Assembly: GCF_017982655.1 (NCBI RefSeq)
Contig: NZ_JABXYX010000036.1
Location: 1-64,000, forward strand
Reading direction: 5' to 3'
DNA from: Brasilonema sp. CT11
GTDB lineage: Bacteria > Cyanobacteriota > Cyanobacteriia > Cyanobacteriales > Nostocaceae
DNA length: 64,000 nt
Made by a program: the position numbers and the translations under genes. This document shows positions 9,205 to 61,712 of this stretch, piece by piece; positions within the stretch are counted from its first letter, which is position 1; each line of letters begins with the position of its first letter. The notes beneath the pieces were generated by a model that worked only from the letters and a program-made list of their open reading frames with translations, ran no database searches and was not told where the DNA came from.

Positions 9205-10752
9205 ATGCCTCTGTCACGTATTATCACGCTGATCGTTGGTCTGATCGTCATTCTCGGACTGAGTCTGTGGCTGATTGATTCTTTCAGTCGGCTTTATTGG
9301 CAATTTTCCTATTCTGCGCCATTGCTGGGTAATCTGCTGTTGTTTTTGCTGATTGTCCTGATAGGAGCCTTAATCGCGGCGTTTATCTATTCTGTGTTCG
9401 TGATTCGGCGAGGCGAGAATCAACGGCGTCAGCGCAAACAACGCCCAAGTGTAGAAGTTCCTGCTGCGAAATCTGAGGCTGCGTCTTCTACTTTAGAAGC
9501 TGTCAAGCAACAAGTCGCGCAAATTCAAGATGAAGTGACACGCCAAGCTTTACTGAGTAAGTCGCGGGAGATTGAGACTTATTTGGCTCGCGGTGAGATT
9601 CAAGTTGTCGTGTTTGGAACTGGGAGTGCTGGTAAAACCTCCCTGGTGAATGCGGTGATGGGACGTGTGATTGGCAAGGTTGATGCAGCAATGGGAACGA
9701 CTCAGGTTGGAGAAACTTATTGTCTGAGGTTGAAGGGATTAGAACGCAAAATTTTAATCACGGATACACCAGGTATTTTAGAAGCAGGGGTGGCGGGAAC
9801 CGAAAGGGAACAACTTGCACGAGAAGTGGCGACAGACGCAAATTTACTGTTGTTTGTGGTGGATAATGACATACGGATGTCCGAATTTGAGCCGTTACGA
9901 GCATTGGCTCAAATTGGTAAACGCTCTGTGCTTGTCCTCAATAAAAGCGATTTGTATACAGACGAGGACAAAGAAGCGATTTTGGCGAGGTTGCGTCAAC
10001 GAGTGCGGGGATTTATTGCACCGAGTGATGTGGTGGCGATCGCCGCAAATCCCCAATCTGCAGAATTAGAAAATGGGGGAATTTTCCAACCTGAGCCTGA
10101 TATCTTACCTTTAGTCCGGCGAATGGCAGCGATTTTACGGGCAGAGGGTGAAGACTTAGTAGCAGATAACATCCTCTTACAATCCGTACGACTGGGAGAA
10201 TCAGCGCGGAAACTCATCGATACTCAGCGTCGTCGTCAAGCTGACAAAATTGTGGATCGGTTTCAGTGGATTGGTGCTGGTGTGGTTTCGGTGACGCCTC
10301 TACCAGTGGTTGATTTGCTAGCAACAGCAGCTGTCAATGCTCAAATGGTGGTGGAAATTGGCAGAGTTTACGGCTGTGAGTTGAATATGGAGAATGCAAA
10401 GGAATTGGCGCTGTCTTTGGCAAAAACTCTTGCTAGTTTGGGTATAGTCAAGGGAGCATTACAGTTACTTACTACCGCCTTGCAGCTTAATGTCGCTACT
10501 TTTATTGTTGGTAGAGCAATTCAAGGCGTGACAGCCGCTTATTTGACGCGAATTGCTGGGAAGAGTTTTATTGAGTATTTTCGTCAGGATCAAGATTGGG
10601 GTGACGGGGGAATGACGGAAGTTGTGCAGCGACAGTTTCAACTCAATCGCCGCGATGAGTTTATTAAGATTTTTATTCAGCAGGCAATACAACGAATCGT
10701 GCAGCCGTTGCAAGGAAGTTCTGAAGTAGAGGAAGAGGAACTTGATCAATAA
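9205..10752 (+). CDS. membrane-associated GTPase with DUF697 domain
   Basis: A 515-aa protein. Two hydrophobic helices lie near residues 5-25 and 40-65, and a short coiled coil near 90-125 leads to an Era/MnmE-like G domain. The G1 motif is GTGSAGKTS near 138-146, G3 is DTPG near 192, and G4 is NKSD near 246. The C-terminal third (after about 330) matches the DUF697/YcjF-like hydrophobic domain found fused to GTPases in cyanobacteria. Likely roles are membrane-linked GTP switching or envelope stress, but there is no experimental anchor in the sequence. It is a single gene followed by repeats. Confidence 0.87.
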   Translation: MPLSRIITLIVGLIVILGLSLWLIDSFSRLYWQFSYSAPLLGNLLLFLLIVLIGALIAAFIYSVFVIRRGENQRRQRKQRPSVEVPAAKSEAASSTLEAVKQQVAQIQDEVTRQALLSKSREIETYLARGEIQVVVFGTGSAGKTSLVNAVMGRVIGKVDAAMGTTQVGETYCLRLKGLERKILITDTPGILEAGVAGTEREQLAREVATDANLLLFVVDNDIRMSEFEPLRALAQIGKRSVLVLNKSDLYTDEDKEAILARLRQRVRGFIAPSDVVAIAANPQSAELENGGIFQPEPDILPLVRRMAAILRAEGEDLVADNILLQSVRLGESARKLIDTQRRRQADKIVDRFQWIGAGVVSVTPLPVVDLLATAAVNAQMVVEIGRVYGCELNMENAKELALSLAKTLASLGIVKGALQLLTTALQLNVATFIVGRAIQGVTAAYLTRIAGKSFIEYFRQDQDWGDGGMTEVVQRQFQLNRRDEFIKIFIQQAIQRIVQPLQGSSEVEEEELDQ

Positions 10753-30911: not shown

Positions 30912-30972
30912 GGTGGGCACTGCCCATAACGTAAAAATAAGGTTTTGAGCGAACTCTAGGCAGTGCCCACCT
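30912..30972. repeat. GGTGGGCA/TGCCCACC dispersed palindrome arms
   Basis: GGTGGGCACTGCCC at 30912 and GGGCAGTGCCCACC at about 30958 are inverse copies. The right arm supplies the last codons of the fatty-acid-hydroxylase-like gene. The same palindrome class occurs after phoD. Confidence 0.6.
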
Positions 30973-31468
30973 TACAAAAATTGCAATAACGTAGTCTTAA
31001 CAGGCGTAACAAACGCAACCAACTTTTAGCTGGCTGTTCAAAAAATGTGAAAATATCGCCATAACCCTGGTTGGTTTTTTGGTGATGTTCCCAATGTCTT
31101 TCTGGAGTCGTGATGAACAGAATTCGGCATAAAATCTCTACTAACTTTGGAGTTTGCCAACCCAAGGTAGTCGTGTGTCTCCACCATACATGAAACTGAC
31201 CAAATAAAAGCCCACACACAACACCAATCGGGGAAAAAGACCATAGAACTGCTGCTACGAGTAAATAAGGTAAAGCACCCAGAATACCATCCAGAAGAAC
31301 TTGGGAATTGAAAGTCAGGATGGCATAATGGCGAAAGCTCTTCTTGTAAGAGTGGTGAGTTCGTAAGTGAAGCATACCAAAAACGTGTTCAGGTACGTGA
31401 TAGCAAAAAGTAGAAAGGAAGTCACCAATAACAAGTAGTATCCAAGCACACGCGATCGCCTTAAACAT
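30956..31468 (-). CDS. fatty-acid hydroxylase/sterol desaturase superfamily protein
   Basis: A membrane di-iron-type protein of about 170 aa. The histidine clusters of the superfamily are present: HVPEH and HLRTHHSYKK, then FGQFHVWWRH, and RHWEHHQKTNQGYGD. Hydrophobic helices separate them. It is shorter than eukaryotic members but normal for bacterial CrtZ/ERG3-like forms. The frame is open to 31513, but ATG 31468 is a better start. The last four codons lie in a dispersed palindrome, so the native C-terminus may have been altered. A decayed copy of its 3' end lies at 29735. The substrate is unknown (a carotenoid or lipid is likely). Confidence 0.8.
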   Translation of the reverse strand: MFKAIACAWILLVIGDFLSTFCYHVPEHVFGMLHLRTHHSYKKSFRHYAILTFNSQVLLDGILGALPYLLVAAVLWSFSPIGVVCGLLFGQFHVWWRHTTTLGWQTPKLVEILCRILFITTPERHWEHHQKTNQGYGDIFTFFEQPAKSWLRLLRLLRLRYCNFCKVGTA

Positions 31469-31513
31469 TGTTTCATCCTCAAATTTTAGTAAAAACCACG
31501 ACAGAAAAAACAA

Positions 31514-32037: not shown

Positions 32038-32658
32038 ATGTCAAAATATCGACCACAAATCAGGATTTGTTTCCTTGGCGAATCATTTGTCAACGGTACT
32101 GGTGATCCTGAGTTTCTTGGATGGACTGGAAGAATCTGTGTTGATGCCGCAAGAAAAGGCTATGATATCACCTTCTATAATTTAGGAGTTAGGCGGGAAA
32201 CGAGTACAGAGCTAAGACAACGTTGGTTAAAAGAAGTTTGTTATCGTTTACCAAAAGAGTACAACGGCAGAGTTGTATTTTCTTTTGGAGTGAATGATAC
32301 AACACTGGTAAATGGTAAACCTCGTGTTGAGTTAGCAGATTCAATAGAAAATGTCCGCAGTATTTTGAGTAGAGCGAAACAGTTGTATCCTGTTTTAATG
32401 GTTGGTCCACCACCATGTGCAGATGAAGAACAAGATGGAAGAGATCACAGAATAGTGAATTTATCTAAACAGTTTGCTGTGGTTTGTGATCAACTCAATA
32501 TACCTTATCTAGATATTTTTCCTATTTTGCAAAAGTCAAAGATTTGGCAAGATGAAGCGAGAGCCAATGATGGTGCTCATCCGAGGGCGGGTGGTTATGC
32601 AAAATTTGCAGAAATCGTGCAAAGTTGGGACGGTTGGTTAAATTGGTTTGATCTATAA
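32038..32658 (+). CDS. GDSL-type SGNH hydrolase
   Basis: A 206-aa SGNH-fold hydrolase. Block I is CFLGESFVNGTGD, with Ser in the GDS-like position (GES here), block III is FSFGVNDTT with the oxyanion Asn, and block V is NDGAHPRAGGY with the Asp/His of the triad. There is no signal peptide, so it is probably a cytosolic esterase or deacylase. It is followed 104 bp later by the aromatic amino-acid permease gene. The substrate cannot be predicted. Confidence 0.85.
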   Translation: MSKYRPQIRICFLGESFVNGTGDPEFLGWTGRICVDAARKGYDITFYNLGVRRETSTELRQRWLKEVCYRLPKEYNGRVVFSFGVNDTTLVNGKPRVELADSIENVRSILSRAKQLYPVLMVGPPPCADEEQDGRDHRIVNLSKQFAVVCDQLNIPYLDIFPILQKSKIWQDEARANDGAHPRAGGYAKFAEIVQSWDGWLNWFDL

Positions 32659-32807
32659 AACATCTCGTTAAACAGCATAGTCTTTGAAAATAGCAGTAAT
32701 TATAAGCACCAGGGTGAGAAAAATAACTGTTTTTGCTAAAATAATTTACATTAATTTATGTTATGTTGCTAATTGTTTCGGAATGTGATCACCTTAACAA
32801 GACCGAT

Positions 32808-34124
32808 ATGAAGGCAGTTCTCAACTCGGATACCTCACAACTCACTCGACTATTTTCTAACCTCGAACTTTATGGAAATAAACTCAATCATCAACCAGGT
32901 AGTGTTTTAGGAAGTACTGCACTTGTTGCTGGAACGACAGTTGGTGCTGGTATCCTCGCATTGCCTACGGTAACTCTGCCATCTGGTGTTGTGCCATCAA
33001 CGGTTCTGCTTGTTGGTGTTTGGCTCTACACCTTAATTTCAGGTCTTTTGATTGCAGAGGTGACTTTAAACACGATGCGTCTTGTCGGCAGTTCGAGTTC
33101 AGGTTTGTTGGTGATGGTTGAGAGGACGCTTGGGAAGGTGGGTGCGCGCTTTGCTGGTGGTGCGTATCTGTTTTTGCACTATGCCTTGCTTGTTGCTTAT
33201 GTTAGCCAAGGTGGAAAGATTTTAATATCTGCTGTTGAAAAAGTGTTAGGTGTGCAGAATCATCTGCCTGCTTGGGTGGGGACAACAACGTTCACTCTCT
33301 TGTTTGGTGGCATTATGTATCTTGGGCGAGAAAGATTTGTAGAAAAATTAAACAGCGCGTTTGTGGCAATTGTCCTTGCTTCATTTGTTGGACTGTTAGT
33401 GTTGGCAGCAACGCAGGTTAAGACTTCCTCTTTCTCATTTCAAGATTGGAGTGCACTTCCTGCAGCCGTTTCAGTGATGTTTGTGGCGCTCTTTTACAGT
33501 AACGTTGTGCCAACAGTTGTCACTCAACTCGAAGGTGATGTCCGTAAAATACGTCAGTCCATCTTCATTGGTTCTGCGATTCCCTTAATCATGTTCTTGG
33601 CTTGGAATGCCGTGATTTTGGGAAGCGTCAGCACTGATATGCTACAAGGCACTTCTGGTGGCGGAACTGTTTTTGATCCACTGCAAATTCTGCGTGATGG
33701 TGGTGCAGGAGAATGGTTAGGAGTGTTAGTGTCCGTTTTCTCTGAGTTTGCAATTGTCACATCATTTATTGGATTTGTGTATGGCTTGCTGGATTTGTTC
33801 AAAGATATTTCAGCATCTAATGAGCCTGCTAAACGTCTACCGCTTTTTTCACTGATTCTTTTTCCGCCTATGAGTCTTGGGGCGCTTAATCCTAGCATCT
33901 TCTTGGCTGCTTTAGACTATGCTGGAACATTCAGTATTTCAGTTTTAGGTGGAATTATTCCGGCATTGATGACTTGGAAGCAGCGTCAAGAGCAGGAACA
34001 ATCAAATAGCATGAGTCAACCGCTTGTTCCTGGTGGTAAAGTGACGCTGATTGCAATGATTGGCGTTGCGTTGGTTGTGATAGGGAAACAAGTGGTGTTA
34101 ATGTGGGGTTCGTTTGGATACTGA
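32808..34124 (+). CDS. aromatic amino-acid permease (TyrP/HAAAP family)
   Basis: A 438-aa, roughly 11-helix transporter. The first helix has the family signature GSTALVAGTTVGAGILALP near residues 37-55, followed by regularly spaced hydrophobic segments and a conserved GGGTVFDPLQ loop. The HAAAP family imports Tyr, Trp or related amino acids by proton symport. The frame starts at 32763. I prefer ATG 32808, but the upstream ATG is possible. It lies on the same strand, 390 bp upstream of the RiPP precursors whose processing consumes Tyr residues. A functional link is speculative. Confidence 0.87.
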   Translation: MKAVLNSDTSQLTRLFSNLELYGNKLNHQPGSVLGSTALVAGTTVGAGILALPTVTLPSGVVPSTVLLVGVWLYTLISGLLIAEVTLNTMRLVGSSSSGLLVMVERTLGKVGARFAGGAYLFLHYALLVAYVSQGGKILISAVEKVLGVQNHLPAWVGTTTFTLLFGGIMYLGRERFVEKLNSAFVAIVLASFVGLLVLAATQVKTSSFSFQDWSALPAAVSVMFVALFYSNVVPTVVTQLEGDVRKIRQSIFIGSAIPLIMFLAWNAVILGSVSTDMLQGTSGGGTVFDPLQILRDGGAGEWLGVLVSVFSEFAIVTSFIGFVYGLLDLFKDISASNEPAKRLPLFSLILFPPMSLGALNPSIFLAALDYAGTFSISVLGGIIPALMTWKQRQEQEQSNSMSQPLVPGGKVTLIAMIGVALVVIGKQVVLMWGSFGY

Positions 34125-34513
34125 TTGTTTGGACTGCTTGGCGAACTCTCGTCCCTATGTCCTATGAAACAGGCTGCGCTCAGCACGTTCTATCAAGCTT
34201 CATGCTCAGCATTTTGCTTGATATTAGCTTCTCCACATGAGGCAAAAATTGAAAAATCATTAAGACATGTTGAATAGAAACTGTCTAGGTGAGAAGATTA
34301 CTCAGTCAGTAATTCTATTGCTCCAGTACTTTATATAACCAATAAAGAAAAATTGATGCAGTAGTAAAACTGACGCTTGTTTAATCAAAACTACTAGTGC
34401 AGCACGGCAGAAATATCTGTTGAGTTTTTGAAAGCTCAAAACTAGATGTTATGAGCGTAACTCTGTTTTGCCCAATGGCACTAGCTGTAATTTAAGTAAT
34501 CCCAGGAGAAATT

Positions 34514-34891
34514 ATGTCTCTAGAAGACGTCCAAGCATTCTACGAAAGACTAGGAAGCGACGAAGCTTTTCGTACCCAAATTCAAGGGGTTAATAGTAAA
34601 GATGAATGTAGCCAAACGGTCAAAAGTGCTGGCTATGACTTCACCCAAGAAGAGTTGAAAAAATATACAGCCGAACTGTTGGAGTTAGCTGCTGATGAGG
34701 ATGGTCTGGCTGATTTAGACGAAAAAGAATTGGCAACTGTTTTTGGTGGAATTATGGCACAGCCACTGTATGGAATCATTTATGAACCACCCACTAAGTT
34801 GCCACCTACTAAGCCCATTAAGTGGCCACCCACTAAGCCGCCCATTTATCAGCCAATGTATGGAGTTGTCGTATCGAAAGAAGAACTCTAA
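34514..34891 (+). CDS. Nif11-leader RiPP precursor 1 with two XYG splice sites
   Basis: A 125-aa precursor peptide. Residues 1-79 form a Nif11-type leader (MSLEDVQAFYERLGSDEAFR onward) ending in ELATVFGG, the double-glycine cleavage site at 78-79. The core (80-125) contains LYG at 85-87 and MYG at 115-117, separated by a Pro/Thr/Lys-rich spacer with repeated PPTK. X-Tyr-Gly is the recognition motif of PlpX-type spliceases, which excise the tyramine part of Tyr and leave X as an alpha-keto-beta-amino acid. The maturase gene is 0.8 kb downstream. The start is ATG 34514, with AGGAG seven bases upstream. It shares its leader almost entirely with precursor 2, while the cores diverge. Confidence 0.88.
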   Translation: MSLEDVQAFYERLGSDEAFRTQIQGVNSKDECSQTVKSAGYDFTQEELKKYTAELLELAADEDGLADLDEKELATVFGGIMAQPLYGIIYEPPTKLPPTKPIKWPPTKPPIYQPMYGVVVSKEEL

Positions 34892-34893
34892 GG

Positions 34894-34947
34894 AAGCTTG
34901 AGCAATAAGCTTGTGTTTTTTGGGACGGATGCAGGTAAGTCCGTCCC
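34894..34947 (+). promoter_or_regulatory. tandem hairpins after precursor 1
   Basis: The first is a small stem with AAGCTT arms (34894-34899 and 34907-34912) followed by a T-run (34916-34921), which is terminator-like. The second pairs GGGACGGAT with GTCCGTCCC (34922-34930 and 34939-34947). The corresponding copy at 35657-35682 differs by changes on both sides of the stem that keep pairing. Confidence 0.6.
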
Positions 34948-35257
34948 TATTTGAACAAATTAGCTGAGGATATTTCAAGAATCTAGCATTTGGCTTGATA
35001 TTAGCTTATTTACAGGAGGCAAAATTTAAAAAATAATAAAATATTTTGAATTTAAATTGTATAGGTGAGATAATTAATAACAAGTAATTATACTGAATAA
35101 AAAAAACACTGAATAGTTAGAGAATAATTGATGCAGTGGTAAAACTGACGGCTGGTTAAGCAAAACTATTAGTGCAGCACGGCAGAATGCAGAAATATTT
35201 ATTGCAGCATGGTTGCCTAATCGCACTAGTTGTATTTAACTCATCCTAAGAGGAATT

Positions 35258-35617
35258 ATGTCTCTAGAAAACGTCAAAGCATTTTACGAAAGACTAGGAA
35301 CTGACGAAGCTTTTCGTACCCAAGTTCAAGGAGCTAACACTAAGGATGAATGTAGCCAAACGGTCAAAAGTGCTGGCTATGATTTCACCCAAGAAGAATT
35401 TGAAGAATATACAGCCGAACTGTTGGAGTTAAGTGCTGATGAGGACGAACTGGCAGAGTTAGACGAAAAAGAATTGGCAACTATTTTTGGTGGGACTACT
35501 GCAGTGCCGATGTATGGAGTTATTGTTCGACCTGAACCTCAGCCTCTATATGGTGTTGTCATGCAACCACCTCAACCTCAGCCTTTATATGGTGTTGTAA
35601 TGCCATCGCCAGAATAA
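35258..35617 (+). CDS. Nif11-leader RiPP precursor 2 with three XYG splice sites
   Basis: A 119-aa precursor. The leader (1-79, ending ELATIFGG) is nearly identical to that of precursor 1. The core (80-119) contains three sites: MYG at 85-87, LYG at 97-99 and LYG at 110-112, each followed by Val and set in Pro/Gln-rich spacers (PLYGVVM occurs twice). Full processing by a splicease would convert three residues into alpha-keto-beta-amino acids, each with loss of C8H9NO (about 135 Da). It starts at ATG 35258, with AAGAGGA upstream. The radical SAM gene begins 95 bp after the stop, behind a hairpin. Confidence 0.88.
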   Translation: MSLENVKAFYERLGTDEAFRTQVQGANTKDECSQTVKSAGYDFTQEEFEEYTAELLELSADEDELAELDEKELATIFGGTTAVPMYGVIVRPEPQPLYGVVMQPPQPQPLYGVVMPSPE

Positions 35618-35656
35618 TAATTTCAAGCAAGTTTGAGCAGTAAGCTTAAGTTTCTT

Positions 35657-35682
35657 GGGACAGACGCAAGTAAGTCTGTCCC
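35657..35682 (+). promoter_or_regulatory. attenuator-like hairpin between precursor 2 and the maturase
   Basis: GGGACAGAC pairs with GTCTGTCCC around an eight-base loop, 30 bp before the maturase start. Relative to the copy at 34922-34947, a G-C pair has become A-T and a T-G wobble has become C-G, so base pairing is conserved. No T-run follows. It could reduce read-through or stabilise the precursor mRNA, giving more precursor than enzyme. Confidence 0.6.
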
Positions 35683-35712
35683 TATCCAGATAAATTAGCT
35701 GAGGGTATTTTA

Positions 35713-36966
35713 ATGACTTATCGCAGAGTGAGTTACGCGGTTTGGGAAATAACGCTGAAGTGCAATTTAGCTTGTCAGCATTGCGGTTCTCGTGCTGGGC
35801 ACACAAGGGCGAAAGAACTTTCTACTGAGGAAGCCCTTGATTTAGTCAAACAAATGGCGGAAGTCGGGATTACAGAAGTCACCATAATTGGGGGTGAGGC
35901 TTTTCTGCGTCCTGATTGGTTAGAAATTGCCTCTGCGATTACCAATGCTGGAATGCGTTGTGGCATGACGACTGGTGGTTATGGCATCACCTTAGACACT
36001 GCACGCCGGATGAAGGAAGCTGGAATTAGTGTAGTGTCTGTTTCGGTTGATGGCTTAGAAGCGACTCATGATCGTCTCCGGGGTAGAAAAGGCTCTTGGG
36101 AATGGGCGTTTAAGACCATGAGCCATCTTAAGGAAGCTGGTATTATCTTTGGCTGCAACACTCAAATAAATCGCCTATCTGCACCAGAATTTCCCCAAAT
36201 CTACGAGCGTATCCGTGATGCTGGCATTTTTGCTTGGCAGATTCAGTTAACAGTCCCAATGGGCAATGCAGCGGATAATAGTGAGATTCTACTGCAACCA
36301 TATGAACTGCTGGATGTCTATCCAATGATAGCTCGTGTTGCCCAACGCGCCCAGGAAGAAGGAGTGCAGGTTCAGCCAGGAAACAATATCGGCTATTACG
36401 GTCCCTACGAACGACTGCTGCGGGGAGGACATGCTTGGGCTTTCTGGCAGGGATGCAACGCCGGACTGGCTACTTTGGGCATTGAAGCCGATGGTGCAAT
36501 CAAAGGTTGTCCTTCACTGCCGACTTCCGCATACACCGGAGGTAACATCCGCGACCACTCACTGCGAACAATCATTGAAGAGGCAGAGGAATTACGATTT
36601 AATCTCGGAGCTGATACTCCCAAAGGAACAGATCATCTTTGGGGTTTCTGCAAGACTTGTGAATTTGCTCAACTCTGTCGTGGTGGTTGCTCTTGGACTG
36701 CTCATGTTTTCTTTGACAAACGAGGTAATAATCCTTACTGTCACCATCGTGCTTTAACGCAAGCAAAACGCGGTGTTCGCGAGCGAGTGTTTCTCCAGCA
36801 TAAGGCGGAGGGAAACCCGTTTGATAATGGCGAGTTTGCTCTGGTTGAGGAAGCAATTGGTGCTCCTTTGCCAGCAAACGATCCACTTCAGTTTAGTGGC
36901 GATCGCATTCAATGGCCACAAAGTTGGCAACAAGAACTATCAGTTCCTTCATTAACAACTCATTAA
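35713..36966 (+). CDS. radical SAM/SPASM peptide maturase (PlpX-like splicease)
   Basis: A 417-aa radical SAM enzyme. The 4Fe-4S cluster motif is CNLACQHC (Cys17, Cys21, Cys24). A TIM-barrel core with GGEAFLRPDW follows. The C-terminal SPASM region has C-rich motifs (WQGCNAGLATLGIEADGAIK, GCPSL, FCKTCEFAQLCRGGC, NPYCHH) for auxiliary clusters. It matches the nif11-class peptide maturase group to which PlpX belongs. Adjacent XYG-containing precursors and a small partner gene support splicease activity: excision of tyramine from X-Tyr-Gly. The start ATG 35713 is preceded by GAGGG. The partner gene starts two bases after the stop, so they are translationally coupled. Confidence 0.9.
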   Translation: MTYRRVSYAVWEITLKCNLACQHCGSRAGHTRAKELSTEEALDLVKQMAEVGITEVTIIGGEAFLRPDWLEIASAITNAGMRCGMTTGGYGITLDTARRMKEAGISVVSVSVDGLEATHDRLRGRKGSWEWAFKTMSHLKEAGIIFGCNTQINRLSAPEFPQIYERIRDAGIFAWQIQLTVPMGNAADNSEILLQPYELLDVYPMIARVAQRAQEEGVQVQPGNNIGYYGPYERLLRGGHAWAFWQGCNAGLATLGIEADGAIKGCPSLPTSAYTGGNIRDHSLRTIIEEAEELRFNLGADTPKGTDHLWGFCKTCEFAQLCRGGCSWTAHVFFDKRGNNPYCHHRALTQAKRGVRERVFLQHKAEGNPFDNGEFALVEEAIGAPLPANDPLQFSGDRIQWPQSWQQELSVPSLTTH

Positions 36967-36968
36967 TC

Positions 36969-37145
36969 ATGTCTGAAGAAAATACAACTATTACTAACTC
37001 TCAAACTCAGGTAGACTCTCAAGCACCCCTGTTACCTCGTTTGGCTTGGAGTAATCAGATAGCTTATTTGCGAGTTGTTTTGAGAGCGAAGAGGGCTTTA
37101 GACAGAATAGAAAAGGAAGCAGGTTTAAATGTGTTGGAAAGTTAA
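36969..37145 (+). CDS. small PlpY-like partner of the radical SAM maturase
   Basis: A 58-aa protein starting at ATG 36969, two bases after the maturase stop. After a disordered, Thr/Gln-rich N-terminus comes a conserved-looking segment, LPRLAWSNQIAYLRVVLRAK, then RALDRIEKEAGLN, which would form a helical hairpin. In described spliceotide clusters a small protein (PlpY) next to PlpX is needed for the reaction. Position, size and composition fit that role. A direct family match cannot be made by eye. The reading frame is open further upstream, within the maturase gene, but that part is out-of-frame overlap. Confidence 0.72.
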   Translation: MSEENTTITNSQTQVDSQAPLLPRLAWSNQIAYLRVVLRAKRALDRIEKEAGLNVLES

Positions 37146-60908: not shown

Positions 60909-61712
60909 CTACTGCCCTAACTCCTGAATATTGTTCATCACTTGTTGATAGAGTAGTTTATTATTCTGTTTATCAAAGATTTCTGCTGCTCGCTGCAAGT
61001 CTTGCCTAGCTTTTTCTTTCTCACCTCGTGCAGCATAGGCATTTCCTCGGTTATTGTATGCTGCGGCAAAATTAGGAGCAAGACGAATCGCTTCGTTGTA
61101 ATCTGTGATTGCTCCCTCTGTATCTCCTTGAGCACTGCGAGCATTACCTCGATTATTATAAGCAACAGCATATTGAGGATTGAGGCGAATCGCTTGGCTG
61201 TAATCCTTTACCGCCTGGTTTTTATCTCCATTTGTTGAAAAAGCATTACCTCGATTATTGTAAGCAACAGCATATTTAGGATTGAGGCGAATCGCTTGGC
61301 TGTAATCGTCTATCGCTCCGTTTCTGTCTCCTTGTGCGGCGCGAGCATTTCCTCGATTATTATAAGCTTGAGCATCGTTAGAATTTATGCTCAGGGCTTG
61401 GTCGTAATCTTCTATTGCCCCCTGCTGATCTCCTATATCAAAGCGAGCAAGTCCCCGACTGTTATATGCAGTTCCATAGTTGGGAGTGAGGTTAATTGCT
61501 TTGGTATAAGAAGCGATCGCCCCTTGTGAATCCCCTTTAATTTGCTTATACTGACCTTCAATATAAAAGTCTTTGGATTGAGATGGTGTTGCTGCTGGGC
61601 GTCCAATAGGACGAACTCCAATTTCTGTTACTAAAACATCGTCACTGTTGCTACAGGAAACGGTTGCAAAGGCGACAAATACGGTAAACGCAGCTATGCA
61701 GACAGCTTTCAT
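60909..61712 (-). CDS. TPR-repeat lipoprotein
   Basis: A 267-aa protein. The lipoprotein signal MKAVCIAAFTVFVAFATVSC places the lipidated Cys at residue 20. From about residue 50 there are six near-perfect 34-residue TPR units (GAIASYTKAINLTPNYGTAY, AYNNRGNARAAQGDRNGAID type), whose strong similarity at DNA level suggests recent unit duplication. It is probably an envelope protein-binding scaffold. Start: ATG at 61712. A MITE-like repeat lies upstream. Confidence 0.9.
   Translation of the reverse strand: MKAVCIAAFTVFVAFATVSCSNSDDVLVTEIGVRPIGRPAATPSQSKDFYIEGQYKQIKGDSQGAIASYTKAINLTPNYGTAYNSRGLARFDIGDQQGAIEDYDQALSINSNDAQAYNNRGNARAAQGDRNGAIDDYSQAIRLNPKYAVAYNNRGNAFSTNGDKNQAVKDYSQAIRLNPQYAVAYNNRGNARSAQGDTEGAITDYNEAIRLAPNFAAAYNNRGNAYAARGEKEKARQDLQRAAEIFDKQNNKLLYQQVMNNIQELGQ

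What the first reader, a model, noticed from the sequence alone, without database searches (positions are those of the whole stretch)
34206..37145. Compact spliceotide-type RiPP cluster: two XYG precursors, radical SAM splicease, small partner
Seen: two Nif11-leader peptides ending in GG and carrying L/M-Y-G motifs (two in the first core, three in the second), a radical SAM/SPASM enzyme with CNLACQHC, and a 58-aa gene two bases behind it. Known: PlpX/PlpY from Pleurocapsa excise the tyramine part of Tyr in XYG motifs of PlpA peptides, leaving an alpha-keto-beta-amino acid. Inference: each precursor is spliced at each XYG, removing about 135 Da per site. No protease or exporter gene is adjacent.
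Basis: partly seen in the sequence, partly recalled or inferred. Interest (0 to 1): 0.9.

Follow-up and report, generated by a model that had tools for sequence, protein, structure and literature searches.

The report
Compact spliceotide cluster from a cyanobacterium
A cyanobacterium related to Brasilonema carries a four-gene set of the known Pleurocapsa type, two peptide genes plus an enzyme and its small helper, that should cut most of a tyrosine out of the peptide backbone and leave a reactive ketone; the chemistry is remarkable but already known, and this is one more member.

Summary
Confirmed. Window 34514-37145 encodes two Nif11-leader precursors (cores with two and three [LM]-Tyr-Gly sites), a 417-aa radical SAM/SPASM maturase and a 58-aa gene two bases behind it. 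The maturase scores 829 bits against TIGR04103 (cut-off 725) and is 75% identical over 413 residues to the PlpX of a locus holding the published Pleurocapsa splice sites. The 58-aa protein is a PlpY homologue; one lies downstream of the maturase in 77 of 77 testable loci. Of 121 distinct related cores, 116 carry YG (189 motifs; shuffles average 21.7). The two cores lack Cys, which speaks against thioethers in them. Best reading: a PlpXY-type splicease with two substrates, predicted to lose 2 x and 3 x 135.07 Da; the reaction itself is untested. No exporter or leader protease is adjacent; a C39-ABC/HlyD export locus on another contig could serve in trans. Novelty is low: tyramine splicing and its wide occurrence are published. 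Side leads: duplication of whole precursor units, and clusters in other genera that add kinase, HopA1-lyase and aldo/keto-reductase genes.

The parts
34206..34513 (+). upstream region of precursor unit 1 (first copy of the repeated unit; presumed promoter and 5' leader)
   Evidence: repeat families D3, D6, D7, 77-89% identity to the second copy; among L055-L135 found only in L055, L056 and L118; no Rfam match
34514..34750 (+). Nif11 leader of precursor 1 (79 aa, ends FGG; Leu-12, Leu-7, Val-4)
   Evidence: PF07862 60.9 bits, TIGR03798 53.8 bits; positions -4, -7, -12 as in PMC10885120 (passage)
34751..34888 (+). core 1, IMAQPLYGIIYEPPTKLPPTKPIKWPPTKPPIYQPMYGVVVSKEEL; splice sites LYG 34766-34774 and MYG 34856-34864
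34922..34947 (+). 9-bp stem-loop after precursor 1
   Evidence: fold; stem bases differ by paired changes from copy 2
34983..35257 (+). upstream region of precursor unit 2 (second copy)
35258..35494 (+). Nif11 leader of precursor 2 (79 aa, ends FGG; Leu-12, Leu-7, Ile-4)
   Evidence: PF07862 62.8 bits, TIGR03798 58.9 bits
35495..35614 (+). core 2, TTAVPMYGVIVRPEPQPLYGVVMQPPQPQPLYGVVMPSPE; splice sites MYG 35510-35518, LYG 35546-35554, LYG 35585-35593
35657..35682 (+). 9-bp stem-loop between precursor 2 and the maturase
   Evidence: region after the precursor folds at -27.6 kcal/mol, z -4.2 with 60 shuffles
35713..36966 (+). radical SAM/SPASM maturase, PlpX-type splicease (417 aa)
   Evidence: TIGR04103 829.4 bits; PF04055 and PF13186; 75% identity to PlpX of L135; C17, C21, C24 and C248, C266, C313, C316, C322, C326, C343 invariant in 22 aligned rows
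36969..37145 (+). PlpY-type partner (58 aa)
   Evidence: no Pfam or NCBIfam match; homologue downstream of the maturase in 77 of 77 testable loci; PlpY candidate scores 39.7 bits against the family profile built without it; invariant LPR..W..K..L in 19 rows; model: one helix, residues 24-57

Best explanation
This is a compact spliceotide (tyramine-splicing RiPP) cluster. The Nif11 leaders mark the two precursors. [quoted passage not shown] Core 1 has two sites and core 2 has three. A C39-type exporter, most plausibly one on another contig of this genome, then cuts after Gly-Gly and releases Pro-rich peptides with several ketoamides, which would act as protease inhibitors. Shown here: gene content, family membership, conservation of sites and partner, conserved FeS-type cysteines. 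Inferred: the reaction, splicing at every site, export in trans, protease inhibition.
For: TIGR04103 829.4 bits, cut-off 725; PMC11002830 places PlpX in IPR026482 (passage), and that this entry corresponds to TIGR04103 is recalled. 75% identity to PlpX of L135, a locus with the cores AVAAMYGVVFP and PIRPLYGLPI and the order precursors-PlpX-PlpY (tags in PMC10533398). Partner in 77 of 77 testable loci and homologous to PlpY. YG in 116 of 121 distinct cores; X is Leu in 90 and Met in 48 of the 188 sites with two flanking residues on each side, matching the MYG/LYG sites on which PlpXY naturally acts (PMC10533398, passage). Ten Cys invariant in 22 rows. No Cys in either core. GG leaders with Leu-12, Leu-7, Val/Ile-4. 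On contig C348 of the same genome lie C39-ABC, HlyD-like and PPIase-like genes; the C39-ABC protein (PF03412 137.3 bits) is 67% identical to a protein 2.6 kb from the splicease in L066.
Against: No biochemical data. The partner is short and only 22% identical to the PlpY candidate over its length. An XYG motif alone is not enough in foreign contexts (2 of 16 rows of the FtsZ table). No exporter or protease gene is adjacent. Genome G454 is unnamed; that it is Pleurocapsa PCC 7319 rests on the two published cores and gene order. The partner profile was built from partner ORFs of these same loci, so the 77 of 77 is partly by construction. In 5 of 80 loci no Nif11 precursor with YG was found (L079, L080, L089, L092, L094); L092 and L094 begin close to the maturase, the other three are unexplained.
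Confidence: 0.92

Rival explanations
1. The maturase carries out another radical SAM/SPASM reaction on the cores, such as a thioether, a C-C or C-O crosslink at Tyr, or an epimerisation, and the XYG motifs are sites of that reaction.
For: SPASM RiPP maturases cover many chemistries; weaker matches to sactipeptide, PqqE-like and other families appear.
Against: Of the 25 families shown (89 matched), only TIGR04103 is above its cut-off; 75% identity to PlpX; no Cys in the cores; a PlpY homologue is present.
Confidence: 0.04
2. The splicease is real but only some of the five sites are processed, so the product carries fewer ketoamides than sites.
For: Context dependence of PlpXY in FtsZ, 2 of 16 tag rows accepted (PMC10533398).
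Against: All five sites have the form [QV]-P-[LM]-Y-G-[IV]-[IV], the commonest context in the family: the residue before X is Pro in 120 and the one after Gly is Val in 128 of 188 sites.
Confidence: 0.3
3. The product is not exported: it acts inside the cell with its leader attached or cut by a housekeeping protease, for instance as an internal protease regulator.
For: No exporter or protease near the cluster; window, L055, L056 and L118 have no C39, HlyD or PPIase match in the stretches examined, about 8 kb on each side where the contig allows (the L118 contig ends about 40 bases after the maturase match).
Against: Intact double-glycine leaders; a C39-ABC/HlyD locus elsewhere in the genome; 18 of 81 loci have C39, 22 HlyD and 51 a PPIase match near the splicease.
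Confidence: 0.3
4. The cluster is a decaying remnant that is not expressed.
For: The export genes seen in part of the relatives are absent here.
Against: All four frames are open and the conserved residues kept; B. angustatum (99%) and S. tolypothrichoides (96%) keep the same set, and B. bromeliae (96%) keeps precursor and maturase up to the contig end, with precursor numbers of 3, 1 and 1.
Confidence: 0.04

Closest known systems
plp spliceotide cluster of Pleurocapsa sp. PCC 7319 (PlpA/PlpX/PlpY)
   Same: Nif11-leader precursors with [LM]YG sites, TIGR04103-type maturase (75% identity), small PlpY-type partner directly behind it
   Different: the two plp cores in L135 have one site each, here two and three in Pro-rich cores; L135 has next to its precursors a 485-aa gene with a weak radical SAM match (PF04055, 20.3 bits, below cut-off), which may be the PlpD epimerase (not tested) and has no counterpart here; the two precursors here are tandem copies of one unit
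spliceotide-type clusters of other cyanobacteria (79 loci, L055-L133)
   Same: precursor(s), maturase and partner in the same order in those where both ends are held
   Different: of 81 loci (these, the window and L135), 18 have a C39 domain, 22 HlyD, 51 a PPIase match, 22 both a phosphotransferase and a HopA1-type lyase, and 12 of those 22 an aldo/keto reductase in the stretch examined; the window has none of these near its cluster
Aminopyruvate-forming MNIO pathway (apy, ApyHI)
   Same: also makes a beta-amino-alpha-keto acid in a ribosomal peptide (PMC11117315, abstract and passages)
   Different: different enzyme class, C-terminal Asp substrate, no tyramine excision

Membership tests
PlpX-type splicease (TIGR04103 / IPR026482) | family profile above curated cut-off | tested here: met
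   829.4 bits against 725
PlpX-type splicease (TIGR04103 / IPR026482) | radical SAM CX3CX2C and SPASM cysteines | tested here: met
   C17, C21, C24 and C248, C266, C313, C316, C322, C326, C343 invariant in 22 rows; the SPASM spacing rule is recalled
PlpX-type splicease (TIGR04103 / IPR026482) | homology to PlpX itself | tested here: met
   309/413 identical to the PlpX of L135; L135 identified by its published core sequences, genome unnamed
spliceotide cluster | PlpY-type small partner next to the maturase | tested here: met
   36969-37145
spliceotide cluster | precursor with XYG splice sites after a Nif11 or nitrile-hydratase-type leader | tested here: met
[quoted passage not shown]
   needs co-expression and mass spectrometry
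spliceotide cluster | leader protease/exporter in the cluster (used in spliceotides but not universal: PMC10885120, passage) | tested here: not met
   none near the cluster; C39 transporters only on other contigs
thioether-forming rSAM peptide (sactipeptide, ranthipeptide) | Cys in the core | tested here: not met
   no Cys in either core
RRE domain (58-aa partner) | beta3-alpha3 winged helix | tested here: not met
   model shows one helix, residues 24-57, mean pLDDT 71.8; PMC12710340 also calls PlpY too small for an RRE (passage)

The most novel reading that the evidence does not exclude
The cluster makes exported, Pro-rich, multivalent ketoamide peptides: two or three warheads per chain (12 and 13 residues apart in core 2) that could hold several proteases, or several sites of one oligomeric protease, at once. 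Leader removal and export would be supplied in trans by a C39-ABC/HlyD locus that otherwise serves a kinase/HopA1-lyase RiPP pathway in the same genome. Tandem duplication of whole upstream-precursor-hairpin units (1 to 3 copies among near relatives) would diversify the warheads.
Probability: 0.25. Interest if true: 0.45.

Novelty: new member of a known kind. Interest (0 to 1): 0.25.

Why it matters
Natural homologues of PlpXY with two or three sites per short core are candidates for the more processive spliceases that PMC10533398 (passage) asks for in protein labelling, and give native multi-site substrates in which site order and context can be tested. In itself this adds one member to a family already reported as widespread (review passages in PMC11002830 and PMC10373908).

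Tried and rejected
Upstream Trp/Tyr permease (32763-34124, PF03222) as part of a tyrosine/tyramine economy: rejected, because it, the GDSL-type gene 32038-32658 (PF13472) and the fatty-acid-hydroxylase-type gene 30956-31513 (PF04116) accompany the cluster only in L055, L056 and L118 among the loci L055-L135; it is local synteny.

A broadly conserved regulatory RNA upstream of the precursors: rejected. The 300-nt upstream region is found only in L055, L056 and L118, and Rfam gives nothing. The stem-loop after the precursors is strong here and in two near relatives (z -4.2, -5.2, -5.1 for window, L055, L056), but over 64 loci the mean z is -1.97, with 30 of 64 below -2; between precursors 13 of 31 stretches are below -2 (five of 69 loci with gaps under 40 nt were not folded, and eleven of the 80 loci gave no maturase-precursor pair to the script). 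Suggestive of a processing or attenuation hairpin, no more. No run of T follows the stem, so it is not a standard terminator.

Neighbour families: my first counts (HlyD 36, PPIase 54, C39-ABC 25, APH 24, HopA1 24, aldo/keto reductase 13 of 81 loci) came from single-linkage groups that mixed families, for instance the window's own uptake ATPase in the C39-ABC group. I replaced them by two-round profile counts with at least 60% profile coverage, which can miss fragments; contig ends also limit them.

Link between kinase/HopA1 genes in relatives and Ser/Thr at the start of the core: 29 of 39 cores against 42 of 79, Fisher p 0.03 with the looser groups and without correction for kinship; not claimed.

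Distant TIGR04103 relatives L026-L029 were looked at for ORFs with YG near the end; the one hit, a 42-aa ORF in L028, is not precursor-like and the contigs are short, so this says nothing. PDB by sequence gave four remote matches, SkfB, PqqE and two of cytosylglucuronate decarboxylase.

Literature: searches (listings; from these, passages of eight papers and one section of PMC10533398 were seen). Scott 2022, Morinaka 2018 and Richter 2024 were looked up and are not held; what they say is taken from reviews. I saw no mention of this cluster in those listings and passages, but cannot exclude that Scott 2022 lists it.
Full report
What is there. Two Nif11-leader genes lie in tandem (34514-34891, 125 aa; 35258-35617, 119 aa), followed by a radical SAM/SPASM gene (35713-36966, 417 aa) and, two bases later, a 58-aa gene (36969-37145). 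Both leaders pass the PF07862 and TIGR03798 cut-offs and end in FGG with Leu at -12 and -7 and Val or Ile at -4, the hydrophobic positions named for double-glycine leaders in PMC10885120 (passage). Core 1 carries LYG and MYG; core 2 carries MYG, LYG, LYG. Neither core has Cys.

The maturase. NCBIfam gives TIGR04103, nif11-class peptide radical SAM maturase 3, at 829.4 bits against a cut-off of 725; the next family is at 415.2, below its cut-off of 591.75. The CX3CX2C motif and seven further cysteines are invariant in 22 aligned rows, two of them only 63% identical to the window. PMC11002830 places PlpX in IPR026482 (passage); that this entry is the same family as TIGR04103 is recalled.

Direct comparison with PlpX and PlpY. 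I searched 388 genomes of the order for the PlpA3 splice site and found it in one, G454. Its locus L135 holds two Nif11 precursors whose cores contain AVAAMYGVVFP and PIRPLYGLPI, which correspond to the splice tags in PMC10533398, then a 419-aa maturase and a 56-aa ORF. I take this to be the plp locus of Pleurocapsa PCC 7319; the genome itself is unnamed. The window maturase is 309/413 (75%) identical to that PlpX. The PlpY candidate scores 39.7 bits against a profile of the partner family built without it, and 19 aligned partners, PlpY candidate included, share LPR..W..K..L. AlphaFold2 predicts one helix (24-57) after a low-confidence N-terminus, in line with the statement that PlpY is too small for an RRE (PMC12710340, passage).

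Relatives. In 386 genomes drawn from the phylum, 21 have TIGR04103 above cut-off. A scan of named genomes kept 79 loci (312 relatives, best 80 kept), nearest Brasilonema angustatum (99%), Scytonema tolypothrichoides (96%) and B. bromeliae (96%), so the host is Brasilonema-like. With the window, 80 loci: the partner lies downstream within 1.7 kb in 77 of the 77 with at least 450 bases there (L089, L093 and L118 end too early; the profile was built from partner ORFs of these same loci); 75 of 80 have a Nif11 precursor with YG; 116 of 121 distinct cores with leader E-value below 1e-15 have YG, 67 have two or more and 6 have three or more; 189 motifs against a mean of 21.7 in shuffles; X is Leu 90, Met 48, Ile 16 of 188 sites with full flanks. 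[quoted passage not shown] A tree of 81 maturase rows puts PlpX, on a long branch, with the cyanobacterial rows and the window next to L055 and L056 (L080, L118 and L122 were not in it).

Host genome. There is one such maturase in the genome; the other radical SAM hits are at most 42 bits. Four Nif11 proteins were found; the two outside the cluster have neither double glycine nor YG. Of 14 C39 hits none is on this contig. Contig C348 carries a C39-ABC gene (PF03412, PF00664, PF00005), HlyD-like and PPIase-like genes, two phosphotransferase/HopA1 pairs and a 72-aa double-glycine precursor with Cys. The C39-ABC protein is 67% identical to one 2.6 kb from the splicease in a Nostoc (L066). Export in trans from there is plausible and untested.

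Precursor units. The two precursors are copies of one unit of upstream region, gene and stem-loop (87% over a 291-nt block that covers most of the leader). In the stretches held, B. angustatum has three such units, S. tolypothrichoides and B. bromeliae one each. The order differs: the window has the two-site type then the three-site type, B. angustatum has two-site, three-site, two-site.

Mechanism. [quoted passage not shown] spliceotides are reported as protease inhibitors (statements in PMC11117315 and PMC10373908). Predicted masses are in the next steps. Splicing at all five sites is likely because all have the family's usual context, [QV]-P-[LM]-Y-G-[IV]-[IV], but PMC10533398 shows that context limits PlpXY in a foreign protein (2 of 16 FtsZ rows accepted).

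Verdict. The kind of system is known and reported as widespread, so novelty and interest are low. Of some further interest are the multi-site cores, the missing local exporter, the unit duplication and, outside this window, the clusters with added kinase, HopA1 and aldo/keto reductase genes.

Noticed in passing
L057, L058, L060, L062, L063, L072, L073, L078, L084, L085, L087, L088, L100, L106, L115: In 15 of 79 related loci a phosphotransferase (APH) gene starts within 1.3 kb after the maturase on the same strand; 22 of 81 loci have both APH and a HopA1-type lyase. Such pairs make dehydroamino acids in class V lanthipeptides and kintamdin (PMC9415263, PMC7794033, passages), yet only 15 of 121 cores contain Cys: a possible hybrid spliceotide class.
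   Followed up: partly
12 loci, for example L106:12252-13268: An aldo/keto reductase (PF00248) occurs in 12 of 81 loci, in all 12 together with the kinase and HopA1 genes; it could reduce the ketoamide to an alpha-hydroxy-beta-amino acid.
   Followed up: no
G000 contig C348 (L156:4504-18841): A separate RiPP locus in the host genome: C39-ABC, HlyD-like and PPIase-like genes, two APH/HopA1 pairs and a 72-aa double-glycine precursor with a Cys/Ser/Thr-containing core.
   Followed up: partly
34922-34947 and 35657-35682: The 9-bp stem after each precursor keeps its pairing through changes on both sides (GGGACGGAT/GTCCGTCCC against GGGACAGAC/GTCTGTCCC), a possible attenuator or processing site between precursor and enzyme.
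   Followed up: partly
L055:5848-7916: The nearest named relative, Brasilonema angustatum, has three precursor units in tandem, one with the same core as window precursor 1.
   Followed up: yes
L050:7696-7908; L052:9236-9478 and 9532-9735: Short precursors of 67-80 aa with a shorter leader but still a GG and a YG core; L052 has the contig length of the Microcystis record L109.
   Followed up: no
window 61084-61434: Imperfect 102-bp tandem repeats inside the minus-strand ORF 60909-61712, a TPR protein.
   Followed up: partly
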